From positions 248,001-312,000 of the forward strand of contig NZ_JAKNCJ010000002.1 of the NCBI RefSeq assembly GCF_023509525.1: a DNA stretch of 64,000 bases, written 5' to 3'. Below the pieces are notes generated by a model that saw only the letters and a program-made list of their open reading frames with translations, made no database searches and was not told the DNA's origin. This DNA is from Brachybacterium equifaecis. GTDB lineage: Bacteria > Actinomycetota > Actinomycetes > Actinomycetales > Dermabacteraceae. Below, one piece after another: positions 51,421-51,846 of this stretch. The translations under genes were made by a program, and so were the position numbers. Position 1 is the stretch's first letter. The number at the start of each line of letters is the position of its first letter.

Positions 51421-51498
51421 GCGGCAGATTCCTCGGTGCAGGGGCCGGTCACGTGCATGTGTGCACGTCACCGGCTCCTGCACCGCGCAATCTGCTGC
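51421..51498. repeat. Large imperfect 78-nt hairpin
   Basis: 37-nt arms (51421-51457 and 51462-51498) pair almost fully, including GCAGATT/AATCTGC, GGTGCAGG/CCTGCACC, GCCGGT/ACCGGC and ACGTGCA/TGCACGT; only a few positions are unpaired, and the loop is TGTG. It lies in a 650-base stretch with no convincing gene. No open frame fits. Confidence 0.85.
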
Positions 51499-51507
51499 TC
51501 GCCCTCA

Positions 51508-51732
51508 CGCCGAGGCGTACCCGACCGTCGGAATGAACGCGACCGCCCGATCGAGGCGCACGTAACCGTCGGAATGCGCACGCCGCCCCGATCGAGGCGT
51601 ACGTAACCGTCGGAATGGGCACTACGCCCCGATCGAGGCGTACCTAGCCGTCGGAATGGGCACGGCCGCCCGATCGAGGCGTACCTAGCCGTCGGAATGG
51701 GCGCCTATTCCGACGCTGCGGTACGCCTCGAT
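51508..51732. repeat. Five 41-bp tandem units capped by an inverted copy
   Basis: Units begin near 51508, 51549, 51590, 51631 and 51672, each with ATCGAGGCGTAC (one T/C change in unit two, TC missing from unit one) and CGTCGGAATG. The spacing is exactly 41 bp, so it is not a coding repeat. The fifth unit is followed by its own inverted parts: ATTCCGACG (51707-51715) and GTACGCCTCGAT (51721-51732), so 51673-51732 can fold into a hairpin of 12 + 9 bp with a 5x5 internal loop. Units one and two are the most diverged. Confidence 0.88.
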
Positions 51733-51795: not shown

Positions 51796-51846
51796 CGCGA
51801 GATCGCCTTTCTGTGCCAACTTCTGGCACAGAAAGGCGATCTCGCG
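51796..51846. repeat. Perfect 23-bp inverted repeat
   Basis: 23-bp perfect arms, starting CGCGAGATCGCC and ending at CTGTGCCA, with ACTTC loop. Strong enough to act as a terminator between the converging genes that end at 51283 and 51931, but also possibly part of a repeat element. Both strands translate to nearly the same peptide, a trivial result of symmetry. Confidence 0.9.

What the first reader, a model, noticed from the sequence alone, without database searches (positions are those of the whole stretch)
51508..51732. 41-bp tandem array capped by its own inverted copy
Five units spaced exactly 41 bp apart carry ATCGAGGCGTAC and CGTCGGAATG. The last unit is followed by the reverse complements of both blocks, so the array ends in a 60-nt hairpin. 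Period 41 is not a codon multiple, there are no unique spacers, and the array lies between convergent genes. It looks like a protein-binding iteron array or a repeat born by fold-back replication; I know no described element with this design.
Basis: seen in the sequence. Interest (0 to 1): 0.72.

Follow-up and report, generated by a model that had tools for sequence, protein, structure and literature searches.

The report
Palindrome with helix-phased half-site array
The odd repeat is one of about two dozen scattered copies of a non-coding DNA element, a mirror-image sequence with extra copies of one half lined up at whole turns of the helix, that recurs in divergent form in related bacteria and looks like a docking platform for a still unknown DNA-binding protein.

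Summary
In detail: five 27-nt units at an exact 41-bp spacing (window 51509-51699), then one inverted unit (51706-51732). It is not a one-off. The same genome has 23 such palindromes, plus one probably split by an IS30 insertion, in 16 intergenic regions. Nearly all consist of one to five direct units ending in a single inverted unit. Two other species of the genus carry the same design with their own units and fixed spacings (31 and 32 bp); a species of another family of the order has it at 20 bp. Spacer sequence is close to saturated but spacer length hardly varies, and 20/31/32/41 bp are all close to whole helical turns. This favours a dsDNA-binding protein array over a terminator, CRISPR array or RNA element. 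Other species keep single palindromes with a core GTCGGAAT-N8/9-ATTCCGAC and outer arms that differ but largely stay complementary. It resembles REPIN elements (dispersed extragenic inverted doublets), but the unit is not itself palindromic and no Y1 (RAYT-type) transposase was found in 38 genus genomes. The binding protein, mobility and function remain unproven. A decay of cap-distal units depends on counting degenerate edge units, so directional growth is only a possibility.

The parts
51509..51535 (+). direct unit 5 (outermost, cap-distal, partly degenerate)
51550..51576 (+). direct unit 4
51591..51617 (+). direct unit 3
51632..51658 (+). direct unit 2 (identical over 27 nt to unit 1)
51673..51699 (+). 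direct unit 1 (cap-proximal), left half of the palindrome
51700..51705 (.). 6-nt centre (loop) of the palindrome
51706..51732 (-). inverted unit (cap), right half of the palindrome
51673..51732 (+). 60-nt palindrome matched by covariance model R1 on both strands (74.4 and 74.0 bits; this hairpin was in the model)

Best explanation
The array is one copy of a dispersed, non-coding, extragenic element made of half-sites for a sequence-specific dsDNA-binding protein. Two half-sites face each other at a fixed distance and form the core palindrome. Further copies of the same half-site follow on one side, at a fixed spacing close to a whole number of helical turns (41 bp here), so that several protomers would bind the same face of the helix as an ordered complex. 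The family spreads within genomes in a REPIN-like way, probably moved or copied by a trans-acting enzyme that is not Y1/RAYT and could be the same protein. Shown: dispersal, fixed geometry, conservation of units over spacers, persistence of the palindrome across species. Inferred: the protein, its co-operative binding, and mobility.
For: 23 distinct palindromes in the genome below E 1e-4 (20 of them built the model) plus one probably split by IS30, in 16 regions. Same-strand unit distances up to 45 bp: 30 of 31 are 41 bp here, 25 of 25 are 31 bp in G011, 9 of 9 are 32 bp in G017, 4 of 5 are 20 bp in G141 of another family (distances of 57-70 bp also occur, 2 of 33 here and 3 of 28 in G011, two of the latter about twice 31). 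Offsets from direct to inverted unit are as tight: 33-35 (21 pairs), 35 (12 of 12), 33 (10 of 10), 27 (3, plus two at 47 = 27+20). Unit positions carry mostly 0.8-2.3 bits, apart from the middle four and two others; spacers average about 0.2. Unit-core identity between arrays is 75%, spacer identity 38% against 35% by chance. All four spacings lie within 0.1 helical turn of an integer at 10.5 bp (chance about 0.001 to 0.007). The core GTCGGAAT-N8/9-ATTCCGAC recurs in several species while outer arms change and largely stay complementary. In the 9 arrays with three or more units the cap matches its hairpin partner (.89/.31/.81 for outer, middle, inner part) no better overall than it matches middle units (.87/.42/.80), as expected for repeated sites rather than one selected hairpin. 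R1 finds the palindrome at 74 bits in the window's gpm-herA junction and nothing above 19 bits in 20 of 20 orthologous junctions.
Against: No binding protein or mobilising enzyme was found; families shared between 22 stretches around elements were common ones. Y1_Tnp is absent from 38 of 38 genus genomes. No target-site duplication was defined. Several species hold single palindromes without arrays, so phased units are not essential. The helical-turn argument rests on four spacings, not all independent. The stretch folds well as a single strand, and three of five pairing measures exceed all shuffles (85.9% paired, 23 double-change cells, covariation score; the other two, pairs with change on both sides and further pair types, do not), so a ssDNA or RNA role is not excluded. 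R1 was built from this genome, so a diverged palindrome at a relative's junction could be missed. Mobility is inferred from pattern only.
Confidence: 0.5

Rival explanations
1. Single-strand element: the cap and the last unit form a DNA hairpin processed by a ssDNA recombinase or transposase (REPIN- or attC-like); the direct units are by-products of template switching.
For: Stable stem of 22 pairs whose arms largely stay complementary between species; a 4-nt unpaired middle in this genome; REPINs are inverted doublets with a length-conserved middle.
Against: No Y1_Tnp in 38 genus genomes; the cap matches middle units as well as its own partner; by-product units should not keep exact 41/31/32/20-bp spacing and conserved sequence with near-saturated spacers.
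Confidence: 0.2
2. Transcript 3'-end element: bidirectional terminator or mRNA-stabilising hairpin between convergent genes.
For: 7 of 14 resolved regions are convergent, as here; hairpins in G054 appear, by eye, to follow stop codons.
Against: 3 of 14 are divergent and 4 tandem; convergent gaps are already 21 of 62 among gaps of 100 nt or more in ten own-genome stretches; no T-run follows the palindrome; most of 20 relatives have unrelated G+C-rich hairpins after gpm at this junction; direct units are unexplained.
Confidence: 0.12
3. Neutral minisatellite: a duplicated palindrome arm without function, spread by chance recombination.
For: Spacers are more alike within than between arrays, so units arose by tandem duplication; edge units are often degenerate.
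Against: Unit conservation far above spacer conservation and almost no indels in spacers saturated for substitutions; same architecture in four species.
Confidence: 0.1
4. Polar growing array: new units are added next to the inverted cap by a dedicated or replication-linked mechanism, old ones decay at the far end.
For: In this genome outermost units have more mismatches than innermost in 16 arrays, fewer in 3, equal in 3 (p .004); units 1 and 2 are more alike than the last two in 9 of 9 arrays with three or more units.
Against: The trend depends on counting degenerate edge units: with edge units of more than 5 mismatches trimmed it is 8 against 5 (p .58) and 5 of 6. Not seen in G011 (8 against 5, 2 ties). 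Relaxed constraint on the distal site explains it as well.
Confidence: 0.05

Closest known systems
REPIN / REP-BIME (PMC3116915, passages read; PMC3733652, abstract, one section and passages read)
   Same: Short extragenic repeats dispersed in one genome; inverted doublets with conserved ends and a centre conserved in length; compensatory changes; tandem clusters occur.
   Different: The 27-nt unit is not a palindrome; no GTAG or unpaired CGTC foot seen; no Y1/RAYT enzyme found in the genus; direct half-units at fixed whole-turn spacing on one side.
BOX elements of Streptococcus (PMC3049150, passages read)
   Same: Composite intergenic element with a variable number of tandem modules.
   Different: BOX has different modules (A-Bn-C) with the repeats inside; here one unit makes both the array and the cap.
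Plasmid iteron and centromere arrays; multi-site transposon ends such as Tn7 and Mu (recalled, no call)
   Same: Direct protein sites at about whole-turn spacing.
   Different: Dispersed over 16 chromosomal regions, no initiator or partition gene recognised among the scanned flanks, single inverted cap.
MIRU (recalled; search listing only)
   Same: Dispersed intergenic tandem units in an actinobacterium.
   Different: No inverted cap or palindrome core is recalled for it.

Membership tests
REP / REPIN | dispersed, extragenic, multi-copy | tested here: met
   16 regions, intergenic by a heuristic caller except a weak ORF overlap at 635 kb
REP / REPIN | inverted doublet that can fold, with length-conserved centre | tested here: met
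   geometry tested; that the doublet is the unit of spread was not tested
REP / REPIN | each REP itself a 20-40 bp palindrome with GTAG or unpaired CGTC foot | tested here: not met
   read from the sequences: the unit is asymmetric and CGTC lies inside the paired stem; definition
REP / REPIN | cognate RAYT (Y1 tyrosine transposase); reported for GTAG types, apparently lacking for CGTC types | tested here: not met
   PF01797: 0 of 38 genus genomes, control positive in 5 of 14
BOX element | boxA and boxC ends of different sequence flanking boxB repeats | tested here: not met
   cap and array are the same unit
CRISPR array | near-identical repeats with unique foreign-derived spacers of regular length | tested here: not met
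   14-nt spacers, 62% alike within arrays, units themselves vary
CRISPR array | cas genes nearby | not tested
   no cas search was made
Iteron array | direct repeats in helical phase | tested here: met
Iteron array | adjacent replication initiator or origin | tested here: inconclusive
   Pfam of 20 proteins (17 of 29 flanking proteins plus 3 of the window) shows no initiator, but 5 of the 20 match no family
Intrinsic terminator | G+C hairpin followed by T-run at gene 3' ends | tested here: not met
   no T-run after the cap in the window; 3 of 14 resolved regions divergent
Rfam RNA families | match above gathering score | tested here: not met
   20 matches, all below gathering score

The most novel reading that the evidence does not exclude
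A new class of extragenic element in this actinobacterial order: a palindromic core with half-sites reiterated at whole helical turns, spread by a dedicated non-Y1 enzyme that binds them as a phased complex, with the core sequence kept and the outer recognition arms turned over between species; arrays may grow directionally at the inverted cap.
Probability: 0.14. Interest if true: 0.82.

Novelty: new variant of a known kind. Interest (0 to 1): 0.56.

Why it matters
If right, it shows a REPIN-like way of life with a different geometry (phased half-sites) and without a RAYT, in a lineage where my paper searches listed no such element. The four spacings, differing by about whole turns, are a natural experiment on how a protein complex is phased on DNA. 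Finding the binding protein would settle whether these elements are selfish DNA, chromosome-organising sites or both.

Tried and rejected
Rfam: nothing above threshold. Plasmids and phages by distant blastn: no match. Unit pattern in genome contigs: one hit, in an Acidobacteria MAG, no array visible around it; viral contigs: six hits, all the same stretch of one recurring sequence without arrays, treated as chance. RAYT/IS200 enzyme: absent. Recurrent neighbour gene: among 22 stretches the shared families look, by eye, like ABC-transporter parts, MFS, response regulator, aminotransferase and one helicase-like pair. Origin clustering: in G016 9 hairpins lie within -418 to +547 kb of dnaA (a tenth R1 place, 2471984, looks coding and was left out), but the 8 listed G011 loci are spread (-1041 to +1303 kb; that list was cut), so I do not use it. 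R1 hits L177, L180, L181 and L183 in the order, and L078, L087, L095, L096 and L100 in the genus, look coding or chance and were dropped by eye. Marginal blastn hits in four genus genomes were superseded by R1. G017 locus L083 carries G011-type sequence and was left out of the G017 counts.

Weak points of my own handling, found on checking. The hairpin finder does not report the array palindrome even in the window, so it cannot show absence; (R1) replaces it for that. In one search two units were read one base out of register (cap of C1_266, distal unit of C12_538); corrected means are innermost 2.14, middle 1.31, outermost 4.18, cap 3.87. The polarity trend weakens and disappears as degenerate edge units are trimmed, so on checking I lowered the polar-growth rival from 0.08 to 0.05 and the novel case from 0.15 to 0.14. 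Array lists for the polarity tests were drawn up by hand. Alignment A2 has one misaddressed row; one search replaced it, and there element G011 3145166 pairs poorly. The gene caller is a GC3 heuristic; at 386 kb it leaves about 1 kb without a call to the left, and at 635 kb a weak 170-aa ORF overlaps the array. Pfam scans covered 17 of 29 flanking proteins. TRF was run on two of three G141 loci.

Full report
What is there. The window holds five 27-nt units, consensus about ATCGAGGYGYACG-N4-CGTCGGAATG, starting exactly 41 bp apart (51509-51699), followed after 6 nt by one inverted unit (51706-51732). TRF gives it the highest score in the window, and the exact two-block pattern occurs 5 times in the genome, all here, against 0 for the reversed control.

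It is a family. Blastn of the array finds 23 matches in the own genome. Reading them shows one architecture: one to five direct units at 41 bp, ended on the unit's 3' side by a single inverted unit 33-35 bp from the start of the last direct unit. A covariance model of the 61-nt palindrome (R1, 20 sequences) finds 23 distinct palindromes in the genome below E 1e-4, three of them new. A 24th element seems to be split by an IS30 insertion (below). They lie in 16 regions that a GC3-based caller shows as intergenic, apart from a weak ORF overlap at 635 kb: 7 convergent, 4 tandem, 3 divergent, 2 unresolved. In six regions two or three modules stand together, and in each of these all modules point the same way.

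Relatives. R1 gives matches at E up to 0.1 in 24 of 47 family genomes, with 32, 18 and 26 matches (both strands counted) in G011, G016 and G017; several single weak ones are coding or chance. G011 has arrays with nearly the same unit but a 31-bp spacing; G017 has a different unit with a 32-bp spacing. In G016, G025, G002, G029 and G036 I read single palindromes. The core GTCGGAAT-N(3-14)-ATTCCGAC occurs in 6 of 38 genus genomes and 0 of 9 other family genomes, and in 8 of 362 order genomes outside the family, one with 3 copies (G141) and the rest with 1; the reversed control is zero throughout. G141, of another family, has the palindrome followed by direct units at 20 bp in two of its three loci (4 of 5 distances are 20, one 19); TRF confirms period 20 in L189 and shows no such array in L187.

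Constraint. Unit positions carry mostly 0.8-2.3 bits, the middle four and two others less; spacers average about 0.2, their last position 0.8. Unit cores are 84% alike within and 75% between arrays; spacers 62% within and 38% between, against 35% expected by composition. Spacers are thus nearly saturated for substitutions, yet their length hardly changes: 30 of 31 distances up to 45 bp are 41. The four spacings lie within 0.1 turn of an integer at 10.5 bp per turn; the chance is about 0.001 if independent, 0.007 for three independent values. This is the main reason to prefer a dsDNA-binding protein array.

Palindrome or hairpin. On 20 hairpins the stem is 85.9% paired; double-change cells and covariation score exceed all 500 shuffles, while two other measures do not, and the inner helix has no pair with changes on both sides. 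Across species the outer arms differ but largely stay complementary around the core; one G011 element pairs poorly. This alone does not prove a hairpin: in the 9 arrays with three or more units the cap resembles middle units as well as its own partner, and the 4-nt middle is not complementary. Both facts suit repeated double-strand sites. A ssDNA role remains possible.

Polarity. In this genome the outermost unit is more degenerate than the innermost in 16 arrays, less in 3, equal in 3, and units 1 and 2 are more alike than the last two in 9 of 9 arrays with three or more units. The trend rests on degenerate edge units: trimming those with more than 6 mismatches leaves 14 against 4, more than 5 leaves 8 against 5, more than 4 leaves 6 against 5. 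G011 shows no clear trend (8 against 5). Growth at the cap end is a possibility, not a result.

Surroundings. R1 finds nothing above 19 bits in 20 of 20 orthologous gpm-herA junctions, against 74 bits in the window; most of these junctions have other G+C-rich hairpins after gpm. Of 20 proteins scanned (17 of 29 flanking proteins plus 3 of the window), 15 match ordinary Pfam families with no common theme beyond ABC transporters, and 5 match none. PF01797 is absent from 38 of 38 genus genomes, so a RAYT-type enzyme is unlikely to be the mover. In one place IS30-family transposase genes lie between what reads as a cap (C12:244196) and two units (C12:246709, 246750).

Comparison. The nearest analogue is the REPIN: inverted doublets, extragenic, length-conserved centre, sometimes tandem (passages). 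Features tested and not met are a palindromic unit with a tagged foot and a RAYT. BOX elements share variable tandem modules but are built from different modules (passages). Nine paper searches listed no description of this design; the library is open-access only, so absence there is weak evidence.

Noticed in passing
window 51796-51846: Perfect 23-bp inverted repeat (5-nt loop) in the same intergenic region, with a 96% identical 54-nt copy, matching on both strands, at G000:C12:451525-451579: another dispersed hairpin.
   Followed up: no
window 51421-51498: 37-nt-arm hairpin (86% complementary) with an 80% match over 78 bases at G000:C1:677174-677251.
   Followed up: no
G000:C12:244196-246776 (L015, L016): IS30-family transposase genes between what reads as the cap and the first unit of one element; two 78%-alike 300-nt stretches suggest nested or tandem IS30 remnants.
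   Followed up: partly
G016:C1, loci L071-L077 and L079: 9 palindromes lie within about 0.55 Mb of dnaA in a 3.65-Mb genome; the listed G011 loci do not show this.
   Followed up: partly
L084 (G017:C14) and L212 (G016:C1:205000-224900): Related sugar ABC-transporter-like genes lie near elements in both species; may be coincidence.
   Followed up: no
G054 loci L184-L186: Near-identical perfect hairpins (GAGCGTCTCTGTCCGTCAGGAATC and its complement) at three places in another family of the order, apparently near gene ends by eye.
   Followed up: no
G034:C1:71506-72120: Run of 11 matches at 54-bp steps, weakly matching part of the window query.
   Followed up: no
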